This document shows positions 27,225-42,568 of a stretch of DNA of 64,000 bases, piece after piece (the stretch's first letter is position 1; every line of letters begins with the position of its first letter). Source of the stretch: a virus. The notes beneath the pieces were generated by a model that was not told the DNA's origin, ran no database searches, and worked only from the letters and a program-made list of their open reading frames with translations. A program made the position numbers and the translations under genes. The stretch lies in IMG/VR virus record IMGVR_UViG_3300034407_003683, positions 1-64,000 of that record. The stretch is one strand, 5' to 3'.

Positions 27225-27232
27225 TATTTATA
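27225..27232 (-). promoter_or_regulatory. T4-type late promoter octamer
   Basis: TATAAATA on the minus strand, 31 bases before the ATG of the 961-residue fibre and overlapping the stop of the 1560-residue fibre. Confidence 0.6.
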
Positions 27233-30200
27233 CATCTACATTAATGCGTGTGATATTTATATTTGTGTTGGTATTTACTGGTGATACTAGCAGTCTCACA
27301 TTACCGGCATTTATATCCCCATCAATGGTTCCTAGTGAGGCATTAGTAATAATATCTGCATATGTTGTCATATAAACAGTTGATCCATCATGTACCAATA
27401 GAATTTCACTAGAGTGATAACCACTAGTGTGTGACATTTGTACAATATATTTTGCTGTCCTATATGTTGCCGCAGCAAATGTATCTACTACTTGATCTAC
27501 AGTTGTTGTTGTAAGGTTTGTTGCAGTTTGATCAATATACTCATTAACAATAGAAACAACGGTTGCTGAATCTGTACCACCACCACCAGAACCAAAGCCC
27601 AGAGCAGAAATATATGCAGAATCAATTAGATTTCTTACTTCGCCTGAGTCAAGTCCGATATTATTACCACTGAGTTTTGCAACTGTGAGATGGTTACCAG
27701 AATCTGCTGCAGTATCAAGTGTTACAGTATTTCCACCAGACAAAGTATAATCTGTAGATGTTAATAGAATACCATTGAGGTAGACAACAACTTTATCATT
27801 GCTAAAGTCCAGAGTTGCAGAATTATCATCAACACCAGTAAATACTGTTTGACCAGAGTCTGCAGTATATTCGTAAAGAGTCTGTGATAATGGAGCAAAT
27901 GAACCAGTATTACCAGTCAGTGTTTGAATATTAACAATATGACCAGCAGTTACACCCGATGTAAATGTAACTGTATCGCCTGTAACATTTTGTGTATAAT
28001 CTGCAGAATCAATAAGAAGCAGACCATTGAGATATACATTCACTCTACCTTGTGTATAACTTAGAGTTGCGGCATTATCATCAGCACCAGTAAAGATCGT
28101 TTGACCAGAAGTAGCAGTGTAGATATAATGTCTCTGTTGAATTGCAGTGGCACCAGTATCATTACCAGAGAACTTTATAACATTTAGAATATCACCACTG
28201 TCTGCAGCAACTACCAGATCAACCTTAGTAGAATTAAAGGTATAATCTGATGCTGCAAGTAGTGAACCGTTTAAGTAAGTTTGGAATTTACCAGAATCAA
28301 TATCCAGTCCAGTAAATGATGATTGACCAGCCGTTGCAGTAAATTCATATGAAACCTGAGTAAGCGGCGCGGCAACTTCATTTAATTGTCTTGCCTGTAC
28401 ATATGCACTATCAACATCTGCAAGAATAATAGTAGAAACAGTGGCTGAATCTGTACCGGCACCACCAACTAGTGATTGTCTTAGTTGGACATAAGCACTA
28501 TCAACAGTAGAATTGATGATGGAGACAACGGTAGCCGAATCTGTACCGGCAGAAGTTCTAGCGGCAATATAGGCAGAATCAATAATATTAGTTATAAATC
28601 CAGAATCTCTTTGGAGATCAATTTGTCTTGCCTGGACATAGGCCGAATCAATAAGAGCAATAATTGCACCAGAATCAACACCACCTAGTGAATTATGAAT
28701 TGCTATAACATGAGAAGAATCTAGAACATTTGGAGTTCCAGTTAATGATGAATATGCATAATCTTGTAAAGCTTGAACAAATGTTGCATCAACATCAGCA
28801 GTAATAATACTAGACACATTAGCGGAATCTAAAACATTAGGTGCACCAGTAAGATTTGCATAATTGGTATAATAGGTACCTTGTTGACCATCAAGTGTAT
28901 CTGCATTCACATTTAAGGCATTAACAAATGCTTGATTAACATCAGTACTTATAATACTGGATACATTAATTGAGTCAAGTACATTTGGTGTACCGGTCAA
29001 TGATGCATATGCATAATCTTGTCTAGCCTGAACATATGCTGCATTCACATCAGTTGTAATGATATTAGATACGTTTACAGAATCAAGTACATTTGGAGTA
29101 TTCGTGGCATTTGTATAATCTAGATAATAAGCACCATGTTGACCATCCAATGTATCTGCATTCACATTTAAAGCATTTACAAATGCCTGATCTACATCAG
29201 CAGTTATAACACTTGACACATTTGCAGAATCAAGTATGTTAGGTTTTCCAGTTAATGAAGCATATGCAAAGTCTTGTGGCGTTTGCCTTGCTTGAACATA
29301 TGCTGCATCTACATGAGCAGTAACACGGGCGTTTGTATAATACTGATTTGAACCTTCGGTAAGATTACTTGTAGTCTTTGTACCAAAGTCGGAATCAAAT
29401 CCAAGATATTGACCAGTAAGAGTGCTTGCTTCGAATGGAGCCGGTGTGTATGATGCATGGGCAGTATTCAGTTCTGCAGTATCAGGTTCTGGACTATATG
29501 CATTAAATACTTTCCATACACCATCAGTTGCATCTCTAAAGAATCCAGCATGTGTATATGTGCCAGTCTCATTAACATTACCAGCAAAACCGATATCAAT
29601 ATATTGTGTAGGAGATCCGGCAGACTCAAGGTCATTAAGATAGAATAAGTTTTCATCAACAGAGAATGATGCAGTATTTGCAGTAAAAGTAGTTCCTTGA
29701 ACTTGTAGGTTACCACCAATAACAACATTACCAGATACATCGATATTACCAAATTCTACAGAGTCCGTAGTTCCGACAGACTGACCAATCGAAATATCAC
29801 CGGTGTGATTATTATAAATGACACCAGTTCCACCGGATAACCCCTTGCGCGCAATCGGTTGAATCCATGCTGAATCAGTTCTATCAATAATCCTAGCCTG
29901 AACGTATGCAGAATCAACCGTATCTGTAATTGTGTTATTAATTGTAATTGTAACAGTATTTCCAGAATCACTCAATGAAGCAGAAATATCTGAATCAACA
30001 CGGGCTTTTAAATAATACTGATTGGTAGAACCTTCGGTAAGATCATCGGTAGTCTTAGCAGCAAAGTTTGTATTAATAACTGCTTGTGATGTATTTGAAT
30101 CTAGGTAATTTGCATCGTTAGTAAATGCACTAACATTAGTTGGTGCACCAGTTAATGATGCATATGCAAAGTCCTGTGGTGTCTGATTTGACTGAACATA

Positions 30201-31910
30201 GGTTGCATCAATAACGCCAGTAACCGTATTTGAATCCAAATAATTTGCATCATTAGCAAATTGACTTACGTTAGTCGGTACACCTGTAAGTGAAGCATAG
30301 GCATAATCCTGCCTTGCTTGTACATGAGCACTGTCAATAATAGAAATAACTTCGGCTGAATCTGTAGACTGTGCAGTAGTGATATAACCAGCATCATTAG
30401 TAAACTGACTCACATTAGTTGGTGCACCAGTTAAGGATGCATAGGCATAATCTTGTCTTAATTGTACATATGCAGAATCAACTGTAGATACATCTACAGA
30501 ATTACCTGATAAATCTCTAAATGCAAGTTTACCATTACTATCGGTAAGTTTAATATTACCAATATACAGAGATGATCCACTAAGATAAAGATCACGGAAT
30601 CTATTTGAAAGTGTACCAAGATCATATGTGGCATCAGCGGCCGGAATAATATCTTGTGATAGATTTTGAAAATTACTATCAATAATATTTTGTGCTTCAA
30701 CCGAATCGAGAGAATTAGCTCTTACAATTGCCGGAATATCAGGTGCACCGGTTAGAGATGCATATGCATAATCCTGTTTAGATTGAATATAGGCGGAATC
30801 AACATTAGAAAGAGTAATATATCCAGCATCATTACCAAATGCACTTAAAGTGGTTGGTGCTCCAGTTAATGATGCATATGCATAATCTTGTTTTAACTGT
30901 ACATAGGCAGAATCAATAATTGATTCAACTGCAGAAGAATCCAAATATGCAGGTATATTTTGTCTAGCCTGCACATATGCAGAATCAACTTGTAGCAATG
31001 TATCTGCATTATGTCTAACGGTCGTATAATATTGATTAACACCTTCCGACAAATTATCTGTCGATTTGGTTGCCAACCTTGCATCAAAATCTGAATCAGC
31101 TCTAACAGTAGTATAATAAAGGTTATTGCCTTCAGCTATATCTGTAGTAGATTTAGTGGTAATTCTAACATCAAAATCTGAATCTGCCCTAGCAGTAGTA
31201 TAATAAAGATTTGTAGTACCTTCGGGCAGTCCATCAGTAGTTGCATCAGCCAAATCTGAATCAAAATTAGCCTTAGAATAAACTTGTTCCACATCAATAC
31301 TAAATTGACCAGTGACAGAATCATATACTAAATCACCAGATGCACTAAAGTGTGCTCTAATTTCCGCAGCACTGGCACCTGTATATGTTATAATACCGGT
31401 ATTTGGATCATATGATACACTACCATCACCACCAGTATTTGTGACAGAAATTGCATTCTTTGCATCACTATCAGCACGTGCAGTGGTATAATATAAATTA
31501 GTAGAACCTTCAGATAGCTCATCCGTTGTTCTTGTAATAAAATCAGAATCAATAATGCCTTGGGCTTCGGCCGAATCAAGTGCATTTGCTCTTACAATTG
31601 ATGGAATATCTGGAGTGCCAGTAAGTGATGCATAAGCATAATCTTGCCTTGCTTGTACATAGGCAGAGTCAATAAGAGTTATAATCTCTCCAGAATCAAG
31701 TTGTGCTAGTGCTGTGACTTCAACGGCATCTGCAATTGCTTGGACTCTGGCAGAATCAACAAAAGCTCTAATAGTATCCGAAGTATCTTTGTAGTAAAGT
31801 TTACCATCTTCGAAGTTAATGGCGAGTTCACCATATTGCAAATCACCGGCGGTAGGAATTTTGCCGGCAATGGAAGATCTTTTAAGGAGTACCTTTGGTG
31901 TAGTAGTCAT
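27228..31910 (-). CDS. Very large repetitive tail fibre protein
   Basis: 1560 residues, the longest gene in the window. The N-terminus (PKVLLKRSSIAGKIPTAGDL, QYGELAINFEDGKLYYKD) is a standard fibre-start module. The shaft has at least 15 DSAYVQARQ-type units, about ten YAYASLTGxPNxx units and several TDxLxEGSTNLYYTTARADS units. An insert near residue 720 (GNLQVQGTTFTANT, FSVDENLFYLND) matches the neighbouring 450-residue protein. Three copies of the 70-residue beta module follow (about 1215-1440), then an end domain (KYIVQMSHTSGYHSSEILLV). Probably the long, antenna-like fibre shaft. Preceded by a TATAAATA octamer. Confidence 0.85.
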   Translation of the reverse strand: MTTTPKVLLKRSSIAGKIPTAGDLQYGELAINFEDGKLYYKDTSDTIRAFVDSARVQAIADAVEVTALAQLDSGEIITLIDSAYVQARQDYAYASLTGTPDIPSIVRANALDSAEAQGIIDSDFITRTTDELSEGSTNLYYTTARADSDAKNAISVTNTGGDGSVSYDPNTGIITYTGASAAEIRAHFSASGDLVYDSVTGQFSIDVEQVYSKANFDSDLADATTDGLPEGTTNLYYTTARADSDFDVRITTKSTTDIAEGNNLYYTTVRADSDFDARLATKSTDNLSEGVNQYYTTVRHNADTLLQVDSAYVQARQNIPAYLDSSAVESIIDSAYVQLKQDYAYASLTGAPTTLSAFGNDAGYITLSNVDSAYIQSKQDYAYASLTGAPDIPAIVRANSLDSVEAQNIIDSNFQNLSQDIIPAADATYDLGTLSNRFRDLYLSGSSLYIGNIKLTDSNGKLAFRDLSGNSVDVSTVDSAYVQLRQDYAYASLTGAPTNVSQFTNDAGYITTAQSTDSAEVISIIDSAHVQARQDYAYASLTGVPTNVSQFANDANYLDSNTVTGVIDATYVQSNQTPQDFAYASLTGAPTNVSAFTNDANYLDSNTSQAVINTNFAAKTTDDLTEGSTNQYYLKARVDSDISASLSDSGNTVTITINNTITDTVDSAYVQARIIDRTDSAWIQPIARKGLSGGTGVIYNNHTGDISIGQSVGTTDSVEFGNIDVSGNVVIGGNLQVQGTTFTANTASFSVDENLFYLNDLESAGSPTQYIDIGFAGNVNETGTYTHAGFFRDATDGVWKVFNAYSPEPDTAELNTAHASYTPAPFEASTLTGQYLGFDSDFGTKTTSNLTEGSNQYYTNARVTAHVDAAYVQARQTPQDFAYASLTGKPNILDSANVSSVITADVDQAFVNALNVNADTLDGQHGAYYLDYTNATNTPNVLDSVNVSNIITTDVNAAYVQARQDYAYASLTGTPNVLDSINVSSIISTDVNQAFVNALNVNADTLDGQQGTYYTNYANLTGAPNVLDSANVSSIITADVDATFVQALQDYAYSSLTGTPNVLDSSHVIAIHNSLGGVDSGAIIALIDSAYVQARQIDLQRDSGFITNIIDSAYIAARTSAGTDSATVVSIINSTVDSAYVQLRQSLVGGAGTDSATVSTIILADVDSAYVQARQLNEVAAPLTQVSYEFTATAGQSSFTGLDIDSGKFQTYLNGSLLAASDYTFNSTKVDLVVAADSGDILNVIKFSGNDTGATAIQQRHYIYTATSGQTIFTGADDNAATLSYTQGRVNVYLNGLLLIDSADYTQNVTGDTVTFTSGVTAGHIVNIQTLTGNTGSFAPLSQTLYEYTADSGQTVFTGVDDNSATLDFSNDKVVVYLNGILLTSTDYTLSGGNTVTLDTAADSGNHLTVAKLSGNNIGLDSGEVRNLIDSAYISALGFGSGGGGTDSATVVSIVNEYIDQTATNLTTTTVDQVVDTFAAATYRTAKYIVQMSHTSGYHSSEILLVHDGSTVYMTTYADIITNASLGTIDGDINAGNVRLLVSPVNTNTNINITRINVDV

Positions 31911-33512: not shown

Positions 33513-33866
33513 CTACACACCCGTAACGTTAGGATTAACACGAATCTTTCCTTCAAGAACTCTTTCAATAACGGTAGAACCATTACTATCAACATAAGAG
33601 ATCTCGACATCATATACATAAGACCCAACTTTTAAAGCCGATGTCTGTATATTTGTCAAAGAGAGTGTTAGTATCCCTCCGGTAGGGTCTGAAAGTGCGG
33701 CAGCAAATGTGGTTGTATCAGCCGAATCGCTATTAAAATTGCGCTTCATTTGAGCCGCAGCTGAGAAATTAGTTAGGTTTTTTGGATTACCATTTACATC
33801 TACTAGCTCTAATTCTAAAGCTATATCTGAACCTTGGTCAAAGGTAAATTTTTCGTATTCTGCCAT
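33513..33866 (-). CDS. BppU-like immunoglobulin-fold baseplate/fibre adaptor
   Basis: 117 residues. One beta-sandwich domain: FTFDQGSDIALELELVDVNG, PKNLTNFSAAAQMKRNFNSD, LSLTNIQTSALKVGSYVYDV and VIERVLEGKIRV. The pattern QGSDxxxxLxLxDxxGxPxxLTxxxxxxQxR, then G-x-Y-x-Y-D-V, matches the N-terminal domain of BppU-type proteins that fix receptor-binding proteins to base plates. First gene of the minus-strand fibre transcript, preceded by a TATAAATA octamer and divergent to the plus-strand island. Confidence 0.7.
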   Translation of the reverse strand: MAEYEKFTFDQGSDIALELELVDVNGNPKNLTNFSAAAQMKRNFNSDSADTTTFAAALSDPTGGILTLSLTNIQTSALKVGSYVYDVEISYVDSNGSTVIERVLEGKIRVNPNVTGV

Positions 33867-33913: not shown

Positions 33914-33921
33914 TATTTATA
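33914..33921 (-). promoter_or_regulatory. T4-type late promoter octamer for the fibre array
   Basis: TATAAATA on the minus strand in the 125-base divergent gap, 47 bases before the BppU-like ATG. Likely start of the fibre-array transcript. Confidence 0.65.
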
Positions 33922-33931
33922 AAAAAAGTTG

Positions 33932-33960
33932 TTTACAAAACCACATAAATATGATATAAT
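33932..33960 (+). promoter_or_regulatory. Sigma70-type promoter for the plus-strand island
   Basis: TTTACA (33932-33937), a 17-base spacer, then a perfect TATAAT (33955-33960). It lies 32 bases before the first island gene with an AGGAAAAGGGG SD between. The spacer also contains a CATAAATA near-octamer. Unlike the late octamers of the structural genes, this looks like a host-recognised (early-type) promoter. Confidence 0.75.
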
Positions 33961-33991
33961 AGAGATATAATTTGAGGAAAAGGGGTATTGG

Positions 33992-34828
33992 TTGGAACTA
34001 AATATATTATGTACATCTAAACCGTGTGATGGTCTTTTGTATTACAGCTATGAATATTGTAGTTATCTAAATTCAATTGGAATTAAAACACAATTAATTA
34101 TAATTCCACATCCAGGATTTAATCAAGAAGATTACTTTAATTCAATTACATCAAAATATATCTCATATCAAAATGTAACATTTGATCCAGATAGATGGTC
34201 AAATACTACACTCATTATGGGTCGAAGCATGCTGACAATTGGATATCTTAACAGAAATAGATATTCCATGGAACAATTGCTCTTACTTCATTTACTTTTT
34301 AGAGATACAATTGTTGCTGTCTATTCTGAAAATCATCCAATCGAATATGAAAATGCCTTAGAGTATTTTTGTCCATACGATGTAATTGATATCTGTGACT
34401 ATGATGTATATCCAAATGGTGTTGGAGAACATTTTGAAAAGAGAATTAATTTTGACATATATAAACCTATAATCAATGATATTAAATTTAAATATCTTTT
34501 CAATGGAACCAATAAGAAATACTATACTGCAGCGCAAAATATTTTACATAAATATAAGTCACATGGAATTTTAGTATATGATCTAAGTGTCATTGATATA
34601 AACAACAATAATATTATAGTGCCTATGGATAATTTATTAGGTTCGTTTGAATCATACGTCTATACAAAAAATATATTGGATCCAGCTCCACGATTAATTC
34701 AAGAGTGTAAACACTTTAATAAAGAAATAATTATAGAAAATTCCAATCGCGGCCTAGAAGTCTATATGAATAGGAATACTTATGAAAAAAATACTACTAG
34801 TTTCTGGTTGCAGTTTTACAACAGATAA
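33992..34828 (+). CDS. Putative glycosyltransferase-like protein, first island gene
   Basis: 278 residues with a TTG start, chosen because AGGAAAAGGGG lies just upstream and no ATG fits. The N-terminal part (LNILCTSKPCDGLLYYSYEY, LNSIGIKTQLIIIPHPGF) looks like a Rossmann-type strand-helix-strand of a GT-B glycosyltransferase, and a middle segment (CPYDVIDICDYDVYPNGVGE) could border the second domain. No decisive catalytic motif is visible, so the call depends largely on context with three GT-A enzymes. It overlaps the SGNH gene by 47 bases. AT-rich, unlike the fibre genes next door. Confidence 0.45.
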   Translation: MELNILCTSKPCDGLLYYSYEYCSYLNSIGIKTQLIIIPHPGFNQEDYFNSITSKYISYQNVTFDPDRWSNTTLIMGRSMLTIGYLNRNRYSMEQLLLLHLLFRDTIVAVYSENHPIEYENALEYFCPYDVIDICDYDVYPNGVGEHFEKRINFDIYKPIINDIKFKYLFNGTNKKYYTAAQNILHKYKSHGILVYDLSVIDINNNNIIVPMDNLLGSFESYVYTKNILDPAPRLIQECKHFNKEIIIENSNRGLEVYMNRNTYEKNTTSFWLQFYNR

Positions 34829-35516
34829 TTTTAATTCGCTTTTTCACCCAGAAATATCATGCGCTTGGCCTAAATGGCCAAAATTGTTAGCAAATAAATT
34901 AGATATGGATTTAATCAATTTAGCTAATTCAGGTGCTGGTAATGAATACATATATAGTACTCTTATTGACAAAATATCTGAAATTAATCCAAAAAATATA
35001 GGGTTAACTATTGCAGCATGGTCACAATCACAGCGCTGTGACTATGAAATAAGAGATACTTCCCGATGGCTACATGAAAGAATTGACGAAAAAGGTGACA
35101 TACATTATTTTGTTAGAAAAAGTTTAAGATATTATTATAGTTTTCAATTATTATGCGAAAGACTAGATATTCCATATAAGCAAATGCAAATGATAGAATT
35201 ATTTGATGATTATCTTAATGGGTTAAAAGGGTTGCCCGGAAAAAATAATGAAAGAACTATATTATATCCAAAAAATAAATCTATATCTCGAGATAAAGTG
35301 AATGCGTCGTTTTGCACTCATTCAATATTTGACAAAATAGATGATAATATGTTTTTAGGTTGGCCAATCTTACCCGAGTTAAATGGATATAATATACAAA
35401 ACAAAGTAACAGATAACTCTAGATTAAGGCATATTTTTTCTCTTTCTGAATTAGATAGCCACCCAAATAAAAAAGGTCATGAAATGATAGCGGAATTTAT
35501 ATATGAAAATCTTTAG
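34782..35516 (+). CDS. SGNH/GDSL-type hydrolase
   Basis: 244 residues. Block I is the start, ILLVSGCSFT, with nucleophile S11. The NSGAGNEYI segment (G53/N54) serves as the oxyanion-hole Asn region. The C-terminal DSHPNKKGHEMIAEFI provides the catalytic Asp/His (D225, H227). This is a small cytoplasmic SGNH hydrolase of a type seen in marine phages; enzymes of this fold remove or transfer O-acyl groups on sugars. It lies between a GT-like gene and the carbamoyltransferase, overlapping both (47 and 14 bases). Substrate unknown; O-acyl modification of a glycan is inferred. Confidence 0.8.
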   Translation: MKKILLVSGCSFTTDNFNSLFHPEISCAWPKWPKLLANKLDMDLINLANSGAGNEYIYSTLIDKISEINPKNIGLTIAAWSQSQRCDYEIRDTSRWLHERIDEKGDIHYFVRKSLRYYYSFQLLCERLDIPYKQMQMIELFDDYLNGLKGLPGKNNERTILYPKNKSISRDKVNASFCTHSIFDKIDDNMFLGWPILPELNGYNIQNKVTDNSRLRHIFSLSELDSHPNKKGHEMIAEFIYENL

Positions 35517-36987
35517 CGCAGCTCTTAATTCACATGATCATAATACATATGATGGTGTCTTGCACAAACAAATGGAGAGATATACTCGCTTTAAGCATAA
35601 TATCCCATACCATTTTGATGCGTATGATATACATCCAGTTGAAACAAGGCAAAATAAATACGATTATACTTTAATTAATGATTTTTATAAAGAACATTTT
35701 CTTTCTCAATATAAATTATTAGCTTTTACTTTTACTACAAATGCCCTTTCTAAATTAAAAAGTCATAATATACATCAAAACTTTATAAACTTTAAACCAA
35801 AAAACATATGGGACTACTGTAAAATTGATAATCAATATTATATTGACCATCATCAATCTCATGCAACATATGCATACTTGAGTTCTGGTTATAATGAGTC
35901 TGATATATTAGCAATTGACGGTAATGGATCTAATTTTAAATGCATCTTTATTGATAAATTTGGTAATATTACAGATTTATCTAATAAATTACCTATCGGT
36001 CTAATATGGAATTTTATATCATATAATTGTGGGTTCGGTTATCTCAATGCGGGAAAGGTGATGGGGTTGGTAGCATATGGTGAATATAATAACTTACACA
36101 ATTCTCTTTTTAATATAATGGTGACTGATATGGATAATAGTAAAAGTGATTATAAAGATTATTTAAAAAATGAGAATAAATTAGATTTAGCATTTACTTT
36201 ACAAAAATTTACAATGGAACAAGTGTTCAAATATGTATTATCTCTTAAAACTTCAGATAATATATGTATAGCTGGTGGTGTTGCATATAATGGCTATATG
36301 AATGAAGAGTTTACAAAGCATTATAGAAACGTACATGTACCTCCGGCATGTGGGGATGAGGGACAATCACTTGGGGCTTATATGCACGCCGACTATATTT
36401 TAAATAATAATATCCATGTACCTGAAACATATGCTGGACAAGAGTATAAATTTGATGAAGGAGACCCAATTACACCTAGAGAAGTTGGTCAAGCAATTGC
36501 TGATGGAAAAATTATAGGATGGTTTAATGGTAAATCTGAATCAGGAAATAGAGCTTTAGGTAATCGTAGTATTCTTGCTGATCCTCGTAATGCTCATATA
36601 AAAGATATTATTAATGAAACAATAAAAGAAAGAGAAGATTTTAGACCATTTGCGCCTGCAGTATTGGAACAACACTATAAAGATTATTTTAATACAAATC
36701 AACCTAGCCCATATATGTCGCGTATTGTGCCAGTTAAATCAGATAAGATACCTGGTGTGACTCATATAGATAATACTGCTAGGATACAAACGGTAAATAG
36801 AAAACAGAACGAAAAATTTTATGATGTAATACATGGATTTTATCAAGCAACTGGAATTCCTATGGTATTGAATACAAGTTTTAACTGTAAAGAACCAATA
36901 GTTGAAACACCAGAAGATGCAATAAGAACATTTAAAAGAACTAAGTTGGATATGGTAGTGATTAATGGAAGAGCATTAAAGAAATGA
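35503..36987 (+). CDS. Carbamoyltransferase, NodU/CmcH/TobZ family
   Basis: 494 residues, a little shorter than usual for the family. These enzymes make carbamoyl-AMP from carbamoyl phosphate and ATP and move the carbamoyl group to a hydroxyl of a sugar or antibiotic. Kae1-like domain: metal ligands H116 and H120 in IDHHQSHATYAY, AIDGNGS with D139, AGKVMGLVAYG at 183-193, and the glycine loop AGGVAYNG at 257-264. C-terminal domain: GNRALGNRSILADPR at 348-362, RPFAPAVLE at 381-389, LNTSFN at 456-461 and EPIVETPEDAI at 464-474. The N-terminal hairpin is shortened but keeps ERYTRFKHN. Catalytic motifs are intact. Overlaps its neighbours by 14 and 4 bases. Confidence 0.92.
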   Translation: MKIFSAALNSHDHNTYDGVLHKQMERYTRFKHNIPYHFDAYDIHPVETRQNKYDYTLINDFYKEHFLSQYKLLAFTFTTNALSKLKSHNIHQNFINFKPKNIWDYCKIDNQYYIDHHQSHATYAYLSSGYNESDILAIDGNGSNFKCIFIDKFGNITDLSNKLPIGLIWNFISYNCGFGYLNAGKVMGLVAYGEYNNLHNSLFNIMVTDMDNSKSDYKDYLKNENKLDLAFTLQKFTMEQVFKYVLSLKTSDNICIAGGVAYNGYMNEEFTKHYRNVHVPPACGDEGQSLGAYMHADYILNNNIHVPETYAGQEYKFDEGDPITPREVGQAIADGKIIGWFNGKSESGNRALGNRSILADPRNAHIKDIINETIKEREDFRPFAPAVLEQHYKDYFNTNQPSPYMSRIVPVKSDKIPGVTHIDNTARIQTVNRKQNEKFYDVIHGFYQATGIPMVLNTSFNCKEPIVETPEDAIRTFKRTKLDMVVINGRALKK

Positions 36988-37310
36988 AATATATAAATCC
37001 ACAATGCGTAAGCTTCTCTTATAATGAAAATGGAAAAAAAATATACAAATCTCCATACGGATGGTGTAAAGGTATTGCTTACTGTACTGATGGATTTTTA
37101 TTACCATGTTGTTGGTGTGATCAAACAAATCTTTATGAAGATTTTAAAAATTTAGGTTTTTATAATGAAAATTTAAAATTAGAAAATAATGATAGTATAG
37201 AAGATATATTACTTTCAGAAACATGGAAAAATTTTATCCATGTTATATTAAGCACTCCCCATTTAGCCCCTCGAGTTTGTAAAAAGAAATGTGGTATATA
37301 TGAGGGATAA
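36984..37310 (+). CDS. Stand-alone SPASM-like iron-sulphur protein
   Basis: 108 residues with nine Cys, most arranged as in SPASM auxiliary-cluster domains: WCKGIAYCTDGFLLPCCWC (C28, C34, C42, C43, C45) and a closing CKKKC (C99, C103), with an LGFYNEN stretch between. SPASM domains hold extra 4Fe-4S clusters in radical SAM enzymes and are normally fused to the C-terminal side of the core. Here the domain is a separate gene immediately upstream of a radical SAM core, coupled by an 11-base overlap. I infer that the two proteins form one enzyme. No frameshift is needed, since each gene has its own start. Confidence 0.65.
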   Translation: MKYINPQCVSFSYNENGKKIYKSPYGWCKGIAYCTDGFLLPCCWCDQTNLYEDFKNLGFYNENLKLENNDSIEDILLSETWKNFIHVILSTPHLAPRVCKKKCGIYEG

Positions 37311-37962
37311 TGATTATTATCGATATATGCTACATCAAAAAGAAAATGCTAGCATTAATATTGATACGTCTAATAAGTGCATTCTAGAATGTCCTGGTTG
37401 CCAACGAAATGATTTAAGAAATAAAGATAAAATAAAAAATGGCAATATTATGCCTATATCTGATTTTATAAAAATTGTAGAATATTACGATAATATAAAC
37501 TTATGCGGTCAAATATCAGATCCAGTTTATTATAGACATTTTAATGAATTTTTAGATATTACAAAAGAATATCCGACTAAAACTTTTAAAATAGCCACCG
37601 CGGCTCATCAAAAAAATTTACAATGGTATAAAAATGCATTTAATAGACATAATAATAATGTTCAATGGATTTTTGGTTTAGACGGTTTACCCAATACTAG
37701 TTTTTTATATAGAATAAAACAGAATAGTCAATTAATATTTGATGCCATGATATTAGGCACAAAATTAAATAAAAAAATTTCATGGCAATTTATAGTTTTT
37801 GATTATAATAAACATCAAATTGAAGAAGCAAAAAAGATAGCAAAGGAAAATGATATAAGATTTATATTAACAATATCTGATAGAAATAGAAATAGATCAG
37901 ATAGTCCAGAAGAATATAAAAAAAAATATAAGATAAAAAATACAAAAAGAATTATAACATGA
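37300..37962 (+). CDS. Radical SAM core protein
   Basis: 220 residues from the ATG at 37300 (a GTG at 37291 would add three). The cluster motif CILECPGC (C27, C31, C34; CxxxCxxC) follows the beta strand ASINIDTSNK, the usual arrangement that binds 4Fe-4S and S-adenosylmethionine. VEYYDNINLCGQISDPVYY and WIFGLDGLPNTSF are typical later strands of the partial TIM barrel. The auxiliary cluster domain is missing and is probably supplied by the preceding SPASM-like gene. The C-terminus is very Lys/Arg rich. Substrate unknown; in this setting a sugar or a peptide is possible. Confidence 0.85.
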   Translation: MRDNDYYRYMLHQKENASINIDTSNKCILECPGCQRNDLRNKDKIKNGNIMPISDFIKIVEYYDNINLCGQISDPVYYRHFNEFLDITKEYPTKTFKIATAAHQKNLQWYKNAFNRHNNNVQWIFGLDGLPNTSFLYRIKQNSQLIFDAMILGTKLNKKISWQFIVFDYNKHQIEEAKKIAKENDIRFILTISDRNRNRSDSPEEYKKKYKIKNTKRIIT

Positions 37963-38663
37963 ATATTATATGTGTTAAATGGGGTGATAAGTTTAATCAT
38001 GAGCATGTTAATAGGCTCTATAAGATGATACTTAAAAATATAAAAGATGATTTTACATTTGTGTGTTACACAGAAAATCCAAATAATCTACACCCGGATA
38101 TTAAAACTATTCCACTTGATCTCAATTTAAATCTAGAAAATTGGTGGTGGAAACTTACACTCTTTAAACATAAAACGGATGAAGTTAATATCTTTTTTGA
38201 TCTTGATGTAGTAATTCAAAATGATATTACACATCTTAAAGATCTTTGTGTAGAAGATATGTTGTATATGATAAAAGCATATTGGAAAACATATCCTTTA
38301 ACTGAATTTGATACCAATCTAAACTCTTCTGTTATGATATGGAAAGGTGATTTATCTGATCTTTGGATTAAATTTGAAAAAGATCAAGATTATTATATGC
38401 TCAAATATAATGGTATAGATTCTTATTTAGATCATGATCAACATGATAAACTACTTTACATTCCGAAAGGTGAAGTTTATTCTAGGTTATATGGTATAGA
38501 TGAGAATAACTATTGGAAAGTTGGCACAGAATTTAAAAATTATTTCTATTCAGAAAAATATAATATATGCATTTTTAATGGTTGGCGTAGGAAAACCGAT
38601 AAGATTAATAACAAATATTTACTAGATAATAATGGATACGAAGGCTTTGAACAATATTATTGA
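37959..38663 (+). CDS. GT-A type glycosyltransferase 1
   Basis: 234 residues. The N-terminal nucleotide-sugar fold (MNIICVKWGDKF, FTFVCYTENPNNL, WWWKLTLF) leads to the metal-binding DxD in IFFDLDVVI (D81, D83). The C-terminal end has an IFNGWRRKTD segment. Length and layout suit a small cytoplasmic glycosyltransferase without membrane anchor. It overlaps the radical SAM gene by 4 bases and the methyltransferase-like gene by 32. Sugar donor and acceptor cannot be read from the sequence. Confidence 0.78.
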   Translation: MNIICVKWGDKFNHEHVNRLYKMILKNIKDDFTFVCYTENPNNLHPDIKTIPLDLNLNLENWWWKLTLFKHKTDEVNIFFDLDVVIQNDITHLKDLCVEDMLYMIKAYWKTYPLTEFDTNLNSSVMIWKGDLSDLWIKFEKDQDYYMLKYNGIDSYLDHDQHDKLLYIPKGEVYSRLYGIDENNYWKVGTEFKNYFYSEKYNICIFNGWRRKTDKINNKYLLDNNGYEGFEQYY

Positions 38664-39264
38664 TCCAATATATTGGAAAGTTTTATGGAATGCTGCTAAT
38701 GCAGGCTACGACATGAAACAAATGCTTGACAGTTTGTCTCCTAATCAAATTAAATCTAAAGTATGGTTAGTTGAAATGTTAAGTATATGTGCAATAAAAA
38801 ATCCATCTATTCAATTATATGGTGGGTGGAATGGATTTCCTCTTATTGACTTGTTAAGAGAAGAATTCAAAATTTCATTATTAGAAAATATTGATTTAGA
38901 TGAATCAGCGCTGAAGGTCTATAAAAATTTTATTAACAAAAAACAACTCAAAACTAGTGTATATAGAGCAAGACATGGAGATGCGTGTGAGCCATATAAA
39001 GTTGATAAGGAAATAGATATTGTAATTAATACTTCATCTGAACATATGCCAGATTTACCAGAACTTATAAAAAGTAAAAACTATAAAAAATCTTGTATAT
39101 TTGCGTTACAGAGTAATAATATGTTTTACGTTAAAGATCATATTAATTGTGTAAATAGTAAAGAAGAATTAGAAACAAAATCTAAATTATCTAGAATATT
39201 GTATTCTGGTACATATGTAATGCCAAATGGATATGAAAGATATATGGTAATAGGCAATGTCTAA
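38632..39264 (+). CDS. Class I SAM methyltransferase-like protein
   Basis: 210 residues. A Rossmann-type start LYGGWNGFPLIDLLRE (motif I-like, GxxG) is followed by SLLENIDLDESALKVYKNF (motif II region), then RARHGDACEP and a motif IV-like strand IDIVINTSSEHMPDLPELIK. These resemble small SAM-dependent methyltransferases with a GGW loop that occur in marine phages. It overlaps the glycosyltransferases on both sides (32 and 8 bases). No SD is obvious, so its translation probably depends on the upstream gene. Target unknown; O-methylation of a sugar is inferred. Confidence 0.65.
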   Translation: MDTKALNNIIDPIYWKVLWNAANAGYDMKQMLDSLSPNQIKSKVWLVEMLSICAIKNPSIQLYGGWNGFPLIDLLREEFKISLLENIDLDESALKVYKNFINKKQLKTSVYRARHGDACEPYKVDKEIDIVINTSSEHMPDLPELIKSKNYKKSCIFALQSNNMFYVKDHINCVNSKEELETKSKLSRILYSGTYVMPNGYERYMVIGNV

Positions 39265-40162
39265 AGTTATTTTTAGTTTATATATTGACATCCCGGAAAA
39301 TGAATTAGACGAACAGTCTGCTCATTGGGGATCAAACATATCAAAAACTCTTCATACGAAAATACAATTAAAAGATAATTATAAATGGCTTATAGAGTCT
39401 CAACAAAGATATGCCAACTATATTGGTGTTGAGTATAAACACTATACATATGATTCTGCTTATATAAAATATAAAGAATGGTTTAATTTAAATTATCCAG
39501 AGGTTACGTCATATAACATTGTTAATTTTTATAAACTTAAATTATTATATAATTTAGCAAAAGACTATGATGAAATATTATATCTAGATCTAGATGTTAT
39601 TCCAGTTTCAACCGATAACTTTTTTAAAACTTGGGATTTATCACAAGGTATTGCTATTATGAGTGGTACAGCAGAAAGTCAAAAAGATATTGAAACTGAT
39701 AATAGAGAACTTTTAAGAATTAAATATACGAATAATAGTAATAGATCGCCAATCGCAAAGTATTGGAATGCAAAAGCTATGCTTTTAGAAAAAGGATATA
39801 CATGTGAATCAACAGTATTTAATACTGGAATTGTTGGAGCATCTCAAAAATGGCTTAAAGCTTTAGACTATTTTGGTGACTTTAGAAATATAATAGATTA
39901 TATGACGCAGCTAAAAACAGATGATGGATTTTATCCAGAACAGATTCAAAGCTTATTTGGATATGATAATGAAACAATATGGGCATACAAAACACTAAGT
40001 AAAGATGTACCATGGCAAAAGCTAACACCAGATTGGCATTGTTTTATGGATAAATGGAGTTATATTCCATCAAATACTAAACTAGTTCATTGTATCAATA
40101 AAGATTTTAAGTATGTAAGAGATTGGTATGAAAAGAATAATATTCTCAATCTTTTCAAATAA
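39257..40162 (+). CDS. GT-A type glycosyltransferase 2
   Basis: 301 residues. DxD motif in DEILYLDLDVIPVS (D111, D113), preceded by helix FYKLKLLYNLAKDY. Downstream come VFNTGIVGASQKWL (acceptor-side motif) and a C-terminal KLVHCINKDFKYVRDWYEKN. The same three blocks occur in the next gene, so the two are tandem paralogues. Cytoplasmic, with no membrane segment. Overlaps neighbours by 8 and 35 bases. Probably adds one sugar each in a short glycan; identity not determined. Confidence 0.82.
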   Translation: MSKVIFSLYIDIPENELDEQSAHWGSNISKTLHTKIQLKDNYKWLIESQQRYANYIGVEYKHYTYDSAYIKYKEWFNLNYPEVTSYNIVNFYKLKLLYNLAKDYDEILYLDLDVIPVSTDNFFKTWDLSQGIAIMSGTAESQKDIETDNRELLRIKYTNNSNRSPIAKYWNAKAMLLEKGYTCESTVFNTGIVGASQKWLKALDYFGDFRNIIDYMTQLKTDDGFYPEQIQSLFGYDNETIWAYKTLSKDVPWQKLTPDWHCFMDKWSYIPSNTKLVHCINKDFKYVRDWYEKNNILNLFK

Positions 40163-40904
40163 AGTAGAGAAAAATCACCAGTCAACCGGCGATTTTAAAA
40201 TATCTCAATTTATAAAATATAAAGATTCTTTAGTTAAATCGCAAAAGGCGTATGCACAAATTTGTAATGCTGATTACGAATTATTTGAAGTATCAGAAAC
40301 GCTGTATGATAAAATTCAATTTGACAAACTTTATAAAATGGAAGAGTTAACTCAATATTATGATGAAGTTCTTTATTTTGATTTAGATGTCATTCCTAAT
40401 ACAAATGAAAGTTTTTTTAAATCTAATGATTTAAATTCCATTTGTGCATATTCATTTGAAAGAACGTTACAATCAAATGTTCTACAAAGAAAAATATCAG
40501 AAAATGATTTTGATAAAATGAATGTATTTTCAAAAGGCTGTTGTAAAAAATCTATGCTATTACTTGAAGACATAAATTCTGATTATAAAGTAATTAACAC
40601 AGGTATTATTGGAGGTAATAAATACTCTATAGATGCTTTATCATTTGATAAGCGATTAGAAAGTACCTATGATATTTACAATCAAACAATTACTGATAAT
40701 CTTTATCCTATAGAAATTTCTAGAAACTGGAGACCTAATAATGAAGTGTTTATTACATATATGATAGAAAAATACAAAGTTCCATTTATTAATATTGGTA
40801 TTCAGTGGAATTTTATAATTGACGATATATATCCAAATGTCTCAGAAGCGGGTAAATTAATACATGTAGTGCATAAGGATTTTGGTAAAATATATGACAA
40901 ATAA
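40128..40904 (+). CDS. GT-A type glycosyltransferase 3
   Basis: 258 residues. DxD motif in DEVLYFDLDVIPNT (D85, D87), helix FDKLYKMEELTQYYDE, then VINTGIIGGNKYSI and KLIHVVHKDFGKIYDK. Each block aligns with glycosyltransferase 2, but the surrounding sequence is well diverged, suggesting a different acceptor. The 35-base overlap at its start and the 11-base overlap at its end fit the tightly coupled island. Confidence 0.82.
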   Translation: MKRIIFSIFSNKVEKNHQSTGDFKISQFIKYKDSLVKSQKAYAQICNADYELFEVSETLYDKIQFDKLYKMEELTQYYDEVLYFDLDVIPNTNESFFKSNDLNSICAYSFERTLQSNVLQRKISENDFDKMNVFSKGCCKKSMLLLEDINSDYKVINTGIIGGNKYSIDALSFDKRLESTYDIYNQTITDNLYPIEISRNWRPNNEVFITYMIEKYKVPFINIGIQWNFIIDDIYPNVSEAGKLIHVVHKDFGKIYDK

Positions 40905-42102
40905 AAGAATAAAAAAACTTGAAACTATAGCAGATATCGTTTCAAAATTACCCTCTTATTGTTCTGCTGCATTTACTGAAATGTATGTAGACAATAATGG
41001 TCAATATAGATTATGCTGTCATGCTAAACCAAATCCAGTACTTAAACAATATACTAGTGATTCCATTTTACCATTTGAATATTTTTTATCAAAAGAAATG
41101 GAAAATATTCGTGACTCAATGCTTGAAGGAAAACATATCCCAGATTGTGAAAAATGTAATTTGTTGGAAAAATATGGAAAATATTCATATAGACATAAAT
41201 ACATTGCGCGAGACGGGTTTATAACAGATATACAAGAAAAAACAATTAATCTAAAATTAAGAATTTCAGGATCATTCTGTAACCTTGCATGCTATATGTG
41301 CAATCCAGTAAATTCTACTACAAAGAGAAATGAATTAAATAAAATATTTGACATTGATAATACATTAAATGTATTTACTACAGGTATGAAAAATGCTAAA
41401 AGTGTTAAACATGCGCAGTGGAATGATATTGTAACTAATATATTAGAAAATATTCACCTCATTAAAATAATTCATATGACTGGTGGGGAAACTTTACAAC
41501 TTCCTAAATATTGGGAATTTTTGGATCTTATTCCAGATAAACATGCAAAGGAATTAATACTTACACATGATACTAATTTAACAAAGATTACATATAATAA
41601 TCGCCATGTTTCAGATAATGCAAAGAGATTTAAATCATTTAATTTAAGTATTTCATGTGATCATATATTAGATAAATTATCTTGGATCAGATATCCAATT
41701 AACGTAGAAGAATTTGAGAATAATTTACAAGAAATAATATTAGATAAGAATATTAATAAAAACATTAATTGTACGGTTTCAATATTAAATATTGATGACT
41801 TATTTGAAATTAGAGACTACTATAAAAATAAATTTAAAGTTGATGTTTTATTTGAATGTATGGTTGTAAGCCCAAAAGAATTATCAATTTCTAATTTGCC
41901 AGAAAAACTTAAAGATGTATATAAAGAAAAATATAAAAATGATTTTGAATTTATATTAGCAGAGCTTAATAAACCAGCAGATCTAAAATTATTTGATAAA
42001 GGTCTAAAGTACTGTGATAAATTGTCAGCTCACCGACAATTTAATTTTAGAGTTCTATGGAAAGATTGGCTAGAAAAAGTTACGACTTATAAAGATCAAT
42101 AG
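40894..42102 (+). CDS. Radical SAM enzyme with N-terminal SPASM/twitch-like domain
   Basis: 402 residues from the ATG at 40894; a TTG at 40882 would add four. Residues about 20-92 hold a Cys-rich auxiliary-cluster domain (C23, CC at 41-42, C85 and C88 in DCEKC). The radical SAM motif follows in SFCNLACYMC (C129, C133, C136), then HMTGGETLQLP (GGE motif that contacts SAM) and later strands FNLSISCDHI and NCTVSIL. The auxiliary domain precedes the core, the same order as the split pair at 36984-37962. Last island gene; its 3' end overlaps the opposing 162-residue gene by 23 bases. Substrate unknown. Confidence 0.87.
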   Translation: MTNKRIKKLETIADIVSKLPSYCSAAFTEMYVDNNGQYRLCCHAKPNPVLKQYTSDSILPFEYFLSKEMENIRDSMLEGKHIPDCEKCNLLEKYGKYSYRHKYIARDGFITDIQEKTINLKLRISGSFCNLACYMCNPVNSTTKRNELNKIFDIDNTLNVFTTGMKNAKSVKHAQWNDIVTNILENIHLIKIIHMTGGETLQLPKYWEFLDLIPDKHAKELILTHDTNLTKITYNNRHVSDNAKRFKSFNLSISCDHILDKLSWIRYPINVEEFENNLQEIILDKNINKNINCTVSILNIDDLFEIRDYYKNKFKVDVLFECMVVSPKELSISNLPEKLKDVYKEKYKNDFEFILAELNKPADLKLFDKGLKYCDKLSAHRQFNFRVLWKDWLEKVTTYKDQ

Positions 42103-42568
42103 CAACTGACAGCGCTTCAATTAAATTATGTGCTTTTCTTAATTTAGTTTTTGCTTCTTTGTCTTCAGAGTCTTTTACAAAATCTAATTCAAATAATTTA
42201 AGTTTAAACATAAAAAGTTTTTCTTTATCTCTTTTAGAATCAAATTTTTTAAAAATATATTCTGCCAATATTTCGTGCAATGCGCTATCAATATCATTAA
42301 TATCATAAATCATACCGCGTTCTTTAGCAACTCTGATTACTTGATTTTCATATGCTTCTACTTGATCACGAATATGCTTATAAGTTAATTCATGAAGTGT
42401 ATCAATGTCAATGTACTCGAGCAACTTTTGCCAATTAGGATCACCTTCTTCAGCATTAATGACTATTTCAATTGTCTCATCTGCATTTCCCCAATACGAA
42501 GTAACAATAGTTCTTTCATTATTTGAAAAGTGTGCAGTTAAAAATTCATATTTATTTGTATCAATCAT
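42080..42568 (-). CDS. Conserved phage hypothetical protein
   Basis: 162 residues, charged and mostly helical after residue 45. N-terminal part: YEFLTAHFSNNERTIVTSYW, VINAEEGDPNWQKLLEYIDI, then a long helical region (QVEAYENQVIRVAKERGMIY, ALHEILAEYIFKKFDSK). I do not recognise a function. It begins 2 bases after the stop of the 355-residue structural gene, so it is the last gene of that transcript. It converges with the plus-strand island with a 23-base overlap and no terminator in between. Confidence 0.65.
   Translation of the reverse strand: MIDTNKYEFLTAHFSNNERTIVTSYWGNADETIEIVINAEEGDPNWQKLLEYIDIDTLHELTYKHIRDQVEAYENQVIRVAKERGMIYDINDIDSALHEILAEYIFKKFDSKRDKEKLFMFKLKLFELDFVKDSEDKEAKTKLRKAHNLIEALSVAIDLYKS

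What the first reader, a model, noticed from the sequence alone, without database searches (positions are those of the whole stretch)
33932..42102. Plus-strand glycan-modification island embedded in the late structural region
Ten genes on the strand opposite to all others, each overlapping the next, very AT-rich, with a carbamoyltransferase, SGNH hydrolase, three DxD glycosyltransferases, a methyltransferase-like protein, a possible GT-B protein and two radical SAM systems. No integrase or host gene is present, so it behaves as one functional pathway. Established: these families modify sugars or peptides. Inference: a phage-encoded pathway that builds or alters a carbamoylated, methylated or acylated glycan on the host envelope (superinfection exclusion) or on phage fibres.
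Basis: partly seen in the sequence, partly recalled or inferred. Interest (0 to 1): 0.92.

Follow-up and report, generated by a model that had tools for sequence, protein, structure and literature searches.

The report
Swappable phage sugar-modification gene cassette
A marine T4-like phage carries a block of ten intact sugar-modifying genes, with its own promoter, in a fixed slot beside its tail-fibre genes where related phages carry other versions of the block; it probably changes sugars on the infected cell's surface or on the virus, and islands of this kind were already described in SAR11 phages in 2020.

Summary
Ten overlapping, intact plus-strand ORFs (33992-42102, GC 0.27 against 0.37) sit in a minus-strand late region. 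All proposed families check out: GT-B (A), SGNH (B), NodU/TobZ carbamoyltransferase (C), split radical-SAM/SPASM pair (D+E), three GT-A enzymes (F, H, I), Rossmann methyltransferase-like (G), N_Twi radical SAM (J).

More than 100 related viral loci hold colinear versions of the island between the same two flanking genes. Purifying selection is clear (dN/dS 0.10-0.16). The smallest versions are F-G-H-I; larger ones add A-B-C-D-E and an aminotransferase. Some relatives carry the cassette on the late strand. The closest named phage by terminase, C48C1, keeps both flanks but has only two other genes between them.

This is a member of the 'host recognition cluster' islands described for pelagimyophages (PMC7029224). 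New here: fixed slot, modular order, standalone SPASM subunit, radical-SAM-carbamoyltransferase fusions, and an early-type, often leaderless promoter back to back with a late one. Glycan modification is well supported. Whether the target is the host envelope (favoured) or virion fibres is unresolved.

The parts
33513..33866 (-). Left flank (k117): homologue of the L-shaped tail-fibre assembly protein; boundary of the slot
   Evidence: PHROG 3304 4.9e-20 and 1084 4.9e-22; TATAAATA about 50 nt upstream in close relatives
33914..33921 (-). T4-type late promoter element TATAAATA reading left into k117
   Evidence: 14 such sites on minus, 13 minus genes have one close upstream, 1 on plus, none in the island
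33932..33960 (+). Sigma-70 promoter TTTACA-17-TATAAT with TG extended -10, reading into the island. A late-like CATAAATA (33944-33951) lies in its spacer
   Evidence: equivalents upstream of the first island gene in 17 of 62 non-identical loci against 1% in shuffles and 0 of 242 flank genes
33974..33985 (+). Shine-Dalgarno-like GAGGAAAAGGGG before TTG 33992
   Evidence: sequence
33992..34828 (+). A: GT-B-fold glycosyltransferase, anchor gene of the larger cassettes
   Evidence: AlphaFold2 pLDDT 91; Foldseek best PimA 3e-5; viral GT-B hits
34782..35516 (+). B: SGNH/GDSL hydrolase or acyltransferase; Ser11 and Asp225/His227 invariant
35503..36987 (+). C: O-carbamoyltransferase (NodU/TobZ type); HHxSHA and GDEG active-site motifs conserved
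36984..37310 (+). D: standalone SPASM iron-sulfur protein, presumed partner of E
   Evidence: C8, C42, C43, C99, C103 invariant; SPASM in 16/19 members
37291..37962 (+). E: radical SAM core (CxxxCxxC) without its own SPASM domain
   Evidence: D and E fused in L015 10153-11205
37959..38663 (+). F: GT-A glycosyltransferase (DLD); first gene of the minimal cassette
   Evidence: phrog_1962 9.5e-13
38632..39264 (+). G: Rossmann class I methyltransferase / spermidine-synthase-like enzyme; one of the most widespread cassette genes
39257..40162 (+). H: GT-A glycosyltransferase (GT8-like retaining fold, DLD)
   Evidence: AlphaFold2 pLDDT 90; Foldseek LARGE1, XXYLT1, LgtC
40128..40904 (+). I: paralogue-like GT-A glycosyltransferase (DLD)
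40882..42102 (+). J: N-terminal-twitch radical SAM enzyme
   Evidence: NF033640 3.2e-66, above cut-off
42080..42568 (-). Right flank (k162): conserved late gene of unknown function, convergent with J; boundary of the slot

Best explanation
The island is a replaceable glycan-modification cassette of a T4-like marine myophage, held in a fixed slot between a tail-fibre assembly gene and a conserved late gene. Shown by sequence or structure prediction: four glycosyltransferases, an O-carbamoyltransferase, an SGNH acyl-handling enzyme, a methyltransferase-like enzyme and two radical-SAM enzymes, one split into core and SPASM subunits. They are encoded as one overlapping unit behind a sigma-70-type promoter. 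Inferred: host RNA polymerase transcribes the unit early. The cytosolic enzymes build or decorate a short glycan from host sugar nucleotides; the radical-SAM enzymes alter a sugar, and C and G (and perhaps B) cap it with carbamoyl, methyl or acyl groups. The glycan goes onto the host's surface polysaccharide, changing phage receptors and so excluding competing phages.
For: Enzyme families. No clearly hydrophobic, membrane-spanning-like stretch in any of the ten. Conserved order and intactness in more than 100 loci, dN/dS 0.10-0.16 for the five families tested. Gene fusions link the radical-SAM and carbamoyl steps (SPASM+rSAM+carbamoyltransferase in 15 loci) and D with E. Many relatives add a DegT sugar aminotransferase. 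Bacterial relatives of C in the SAR11 family sit beside NeuB/PseI, PseC-like aminotransferase, CMP-sugar transferase, WbuX/WbuZ and PglK/MsbA-like transporter genes. Sigma-70 promoter of the island opposed to a T4 late promoter. Published proposal for the same island type.
Against: The slot lies in the tail-fibre module. In L251, L255-257 and L266 the cassette is on the late strand inside a late operon, and 15 of 62 first genes have a late promoter motif. A late-like CATAAATA also lies in the window's own promoter spacer. No flippase, polymerase or lipid-linked initiating transferase is among the ten families. No expression or glycan data exist. The host of this phage is unknown.
Confidence: 0.5

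Rival explanations
1. The cassette glycosylates phage structural proteins, most likely the tail fibres encoded next to it, tuning adhesion or hiding the fibres, in the manner of phages that glycosylate their own virions.
For: Fixed slot beside a tail-fibre assembly gene. The close relatives in which both flanks could be read all had a cassette between them. Late-strand, late-operon versions in several relatives. H structurally resembles, among others, the PBCV-1 capsid glycosyltransferase, though the match is weak and LPS and eukaryotic enzymes score similarly.
Against: Own sigma-70 promoter on the opposite strand in the window and a quarter of divergent loci. Bacterial relatives of C sit in envelope loci. 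Carbamoyl, radical-SAM and aminotransferase chemistry is more than simple O-glycosylation needs.
Confidence: 0.3
2. The carbamoyltransferase (and glycosyltransferases) hypermodify phage DNA, like the 5-hydroxymethylcytosine carbamoyltransferase.
For: A related carbamoyltransferase from a phage metagenome carbamoylates 5hmC (PMC8670742).
Against: In that study the DNA-modifying enzymes co-occur with thymidylate-synthase-type hydroxymethylases, whereas those beside glycosyltransferases came from unmodified DNA. No ThyA-type gene in this record, although the record may be a fragment. The neighbours of C here are sugar enzymes.
Confidence: 0.04
3. The radical-SAM enzymes modify a peptide (RiPP-like) or a small molecule, and the glycosyltransferases finish that product.
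For: SPASM and twitch radical-SAM proteins often act on peptides (family knowledge, not tested here).
Against: No precursor-peptide candidate is known here (none was systematically searched for). The minimal cassettes F-G-H-I lack radical-SAM genes.
Confidence: 0.08
4. The block is functionally idle filler DNA for headful packaging, as was once considered for cyanophage LPS clusters.
For: That possibility is raised for S-SSM7-type clusters (PMC3037559). Phage C48C1 does without the block.
Against: dN/dS 0.10-0.16 and no decay; conserved promoter.
Confidence: 0.02

Closest known systems
Host recognition cluster (HRC) islands of pelagimyophages (PMC7029224)
   Same: Same place (between VrlC/gp8 side and neck gene gp14), tail fibres plus glycosyltransferases, radical-SAM cassettes that come and go, same proposed function
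   Different: That paper does not mention carbamoyltransferases (0 occurrences); the fixed flanking pair, minimal and extended modules, separate promoter, split radical-SAM and fusions are added here
Pelagibacter phage Mosig EXVC030M island (MT647606, 60990-71305)
   Same: Same slot, plus strand against minus late genes, homologues of A, B, C, D, E, F, G and H in a similar order
   Different: Adds an aminotransferase, a further radical-SAM gene and nitroreductase-like genes; lacks I and J; carries a late-type promoter motif before the first gene
Cyanophage LPS gene clusters (S-SSM7, P-SSM2; PMC3037559)
   Same: Myophage-borne envelope-type sugar genes; the same phages encode carbamoyltransferases
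   Different: Located near hli03/phoH and tRNAs rather than in the fibre slot; carbamoyltransferase of S-SSM7 only about 30% identical
Phage 5hmC carbamoyltransferase (PMC8670742)
   Same: Same carbamoyltransferase superfamily in phages
   Different: Partner there is a thymidylate-synthase-type enzyme; here glycosyltransferases and no ThyA found

Membership tests
Pelagimyophage host recognition cluster island | Lies in the structural region between the VrlC/gp8 side and neck gene gp14 | tested here: met
   gp13/gp14 at 13.7-15.0 kb, gp8 at 51.2-52.6 kb, island between
Pelagimyophage host recognition cluster island | Holds tail-fibre genes plus glycosyltransferases | tested here: met
   k117 fibre assembly homologue and tail/structural protein matches; A, F, H, I
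Pelagimyophage host recognition cluster island | Hypervariable between related phages | tested here: met
   L248-L267 and C48C1 compared
Pelagimyophage host recognition cluster island | Host is a SAR11 bacterium | not testable with these tools
   Only relatedness to a Pelagibacter phage (C 60.6% identical, structural proteins about 23-60%)
NodU/TobZ O-carbamoyltransferase | Carbam_trans_N and _C domains with HxxxH and D metal ligands | tested here: met
NodU/TobZ O-carbamoyltransferase | Transfers carbamoyl to a sugar hydroxyl | not testable with these tools
   needs an enzyme assay
DNA-modifying (5hmC) carbamoyltransferase | Linked to a ThyA-type hydroxymethylase | tested here: not met
   no PF00303 match in the 97.9-kb record, controls rang; record may be incomplete
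Radical SAM / SPASM enzyme (D+E) | CxxxCxxC core plus auxiliary-cluster cysteines | tested here: met
   with the two parts on separate proteins; fused homologue in L015
SGNH hydrolase (B) | Catalytic Ser and Asp/His blocks | tested here: met
   S11, D225, H227 invariant; 12/30 members match Lipase_GDSL_2
Class I methyltransferase (G) | SAM-binding Rossmann fold | tested here: inconclusive
   Weak profile hits to both methyltransferases and spermidine synthases

The most novel reading that the evidence does not exclude
The cassette makes a previously undescribed radical-modified, carbamoylated sugar using a two-protein radical-SAM enzyme (core E plus standalone SPASM subunit D) whose product feeds the carbamoyltransferase. 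Phages swap such sugar-writing modules in a fixed slot, coupling their fibres to a self-made change of receptor or virion glycan.
Probability: 0.25. Interest if true: 0.7.

Novelty: new member of a known kind. Interest (0 to 1): 0.42.

Why it matters
SAR11-type bacteria and their phages are very abundant in the ocean, and how co-infecting phages compete is largely untested. A compact, conserved cassette with a defined slot, minimal version (F-G-H-I), extended version and near-empty version (C48C1) turns the published superinfection-exclusion idea into a testable comparison. It also offers unusual enzymes: a separate SPASM subunit and radical-SAM-carbamoyltransferase fusions.

Tried and rejected
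DNA hypermodification: no ThyA in the record and wrong neighbourhood. D/E as a frameshifted gene: rejected, because relatives keep them as two adjacent ORFs in either order (63 E-D, 33 D-E). Recent capture from a host: not seen. A has only three matches in the bacterial genome collection, all MAG contigs carrying the phage island; G is close only to one such contig. 'Opposite strand' as a defining feature: rejected, since late-strand cassettes exist. Early-only expression: not claimable, late motifs occur too. Sequence searches of the PDB with A and H found nothing useful; fold comparison was needed. A paper search for radical-SAM enzymes with a separate SPASM subunit gave nothing relevant.

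Full report
WHAT IS THERE. The window is the first 64 kb of a 97.9-kb IMG/VR virus record. Structural genes identify a T4-like marine myophage; its terminase is 73.5% identical to phage C48C1 and about 46% to cyanophages, and its structural proteins are about 23-60% identical to Pelagibacter phage Mosig. Between 33992 and 42102 ten plus-strand ORFs overlap head to tail by 4-47 nt; all other window genes are on the minus strand. GC is 0.27 against 0.37.

THE GENES. C is clearly a NodU/TobZ-type carbamoyltransferase with its metal-binding motifs. J is a twitch-domain radical-SAM protein above the curated cut-off. A has no detectable sequence relative in the PDB, but its confident model (pLDDT 91) is a GT-B glycosyltransferase fold. 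H models as a GT-A enzyme of the GT8-like kind; I aligns with H and keeps the DxD; F matches a phage glycosyltransferase family. B belongs to the SGNH hydrolases. G has a Rossmann methyltransferase or aminopropyltransferase fold, weakly resolved between the two. D and E are a split radical-SAM/SPASM pair: E has CxxxCxxC, D has the SPASM cysteines; they stay adjacent in nearly all relatives and are fused in L015.

THE SLOT. Comparison of more than 100 viral loci shows that the same two genes flank the island: k117, a tail-fibre assembly homologue, and k162, a conserved late gene. Among close relatives the content ranges from F-G-H-I alone (L262, L267), through F-G-H-I-J (L258, the same gene order as the right half of the window's island), to versions with A-B-C-D-E, a DegT aminotransferase and further radical-SAM genes. 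In L251, L255-257, L264 and L266 a related set lies on the late strand. In some more distant relatives extra genes lie between the cassette and one of the flanks. In phage C48C1 the two flanks enclose only two genes that match none of the A-J families. The island is thus modular, replaceable and not universal. The five gene families tested (A, C, F, G, H) evolve under purifying selection (dN/dS 0.10-0.16). Fusions of a radical-SAM protein with the carbamoyltransferase (15 loci) indicate one pathway.

REGULATION. The window has 14 T4-type late elements (TATAAATA) on the minus strand, 13 minus-strand genes have one close upstream, and none lies in the island (about 7 expected by chance in total). 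In the 125-bp gap between k117 and A, a late element points left and an 11/12 sigma-70 promoter with extended -10 points right. Across 62 non-identical divergent junctions, 17 have a sigma-70 match of 11/12 or better, against 1% in shuffles and 0 of 242 flank-gene upstream regions. In about 18 of them the -10 box ends exactly 5 nt before the ATG of A, predicting a leaderless mRNA; the window instead has a 31-nt leader with a Shine-Dalgarno-like stretch. Against a simple early-only picture, 15 of 62 junctions carry TATAAATA in the island's direction, and the window's spacer holds CATAAATA.

FUNCTION. The enzyme set, the DegT aminotransferase in many relatives, and the polysaccharide-locus context of three of the nearest bacterial carbamoyltransferases in the SAR11 family (NeuB/PseI, PseC-like, CMP-sugar transferase, WbuX/WbuZ/HisH, PglK/MsbA-like) make glycan modification very likely (my estimate 0.85-0.9). 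The target is less sure: host envelope 0.5, virion fibres 0.3. Each further step (early expression, order of reactions, receptor change) is inference.

KNOWN OR NEW. Zaragoza-Solas et al. 2020 (PMC7029224) described a hypervariable island at this position in pelagimyophages with glycosyltransferases and radical-SAM cassettes, and proposed host-surface change against co-infection. The finding is a member of that kind. The additions here are the fixed flanks, modular order, promoter arrangement, split radical-SAM enzyme and fusions; I did not find these in the papers searched, but that library is incomplete.

Noticed in passing
L041, L047-L049, L054, L059, L060, L063, L066, L076 and others, upstream of gene A: TATAAT ends exactly 5 nt before the ATG in about 18 non-identical loci, predicting a leaderless mRNA for the island.
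   Followed up: partly
L018 3994-6897 and 14 other loci: Proteins of about 960-975 aa fuse SPASM, radical SAM and carbamoyltransferase.
   Followed up: partly
L083, L084, L085: MAG contigs labelled Pelagibacter, Rhodobiaceae and Planctomycetota carry this phage island region, so they look like binning contamination.
   Followed up: yes
Mosig MT647606 61562-62428: The homologue of gene A is annotated there as a molybdenum cofactor enzyme; the predicted fold of A says GT-B glycosyltransferase.
   Followed up: yes
record positions 65387-68411 (L086): A short plus-strand run of baseplate/gp2 homologues lies just outside the window.
   Followed up: no
window 27228-31910: 1560-aa structural protein with many DSAYVQ-type repeats next to the slot.
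   Followed up: no
window 33944-33951: Late-promoter-like CATAAATA inside the sigma-70 spacer, also present in L248 and L249.
   Followed up: partly
L282 43598-45030 (phage C48C1): The same slot holds only two other genes, one with a DxD-like motif (YIDADME) suggestive of a glycosyltransferase.
   Followed up: partly
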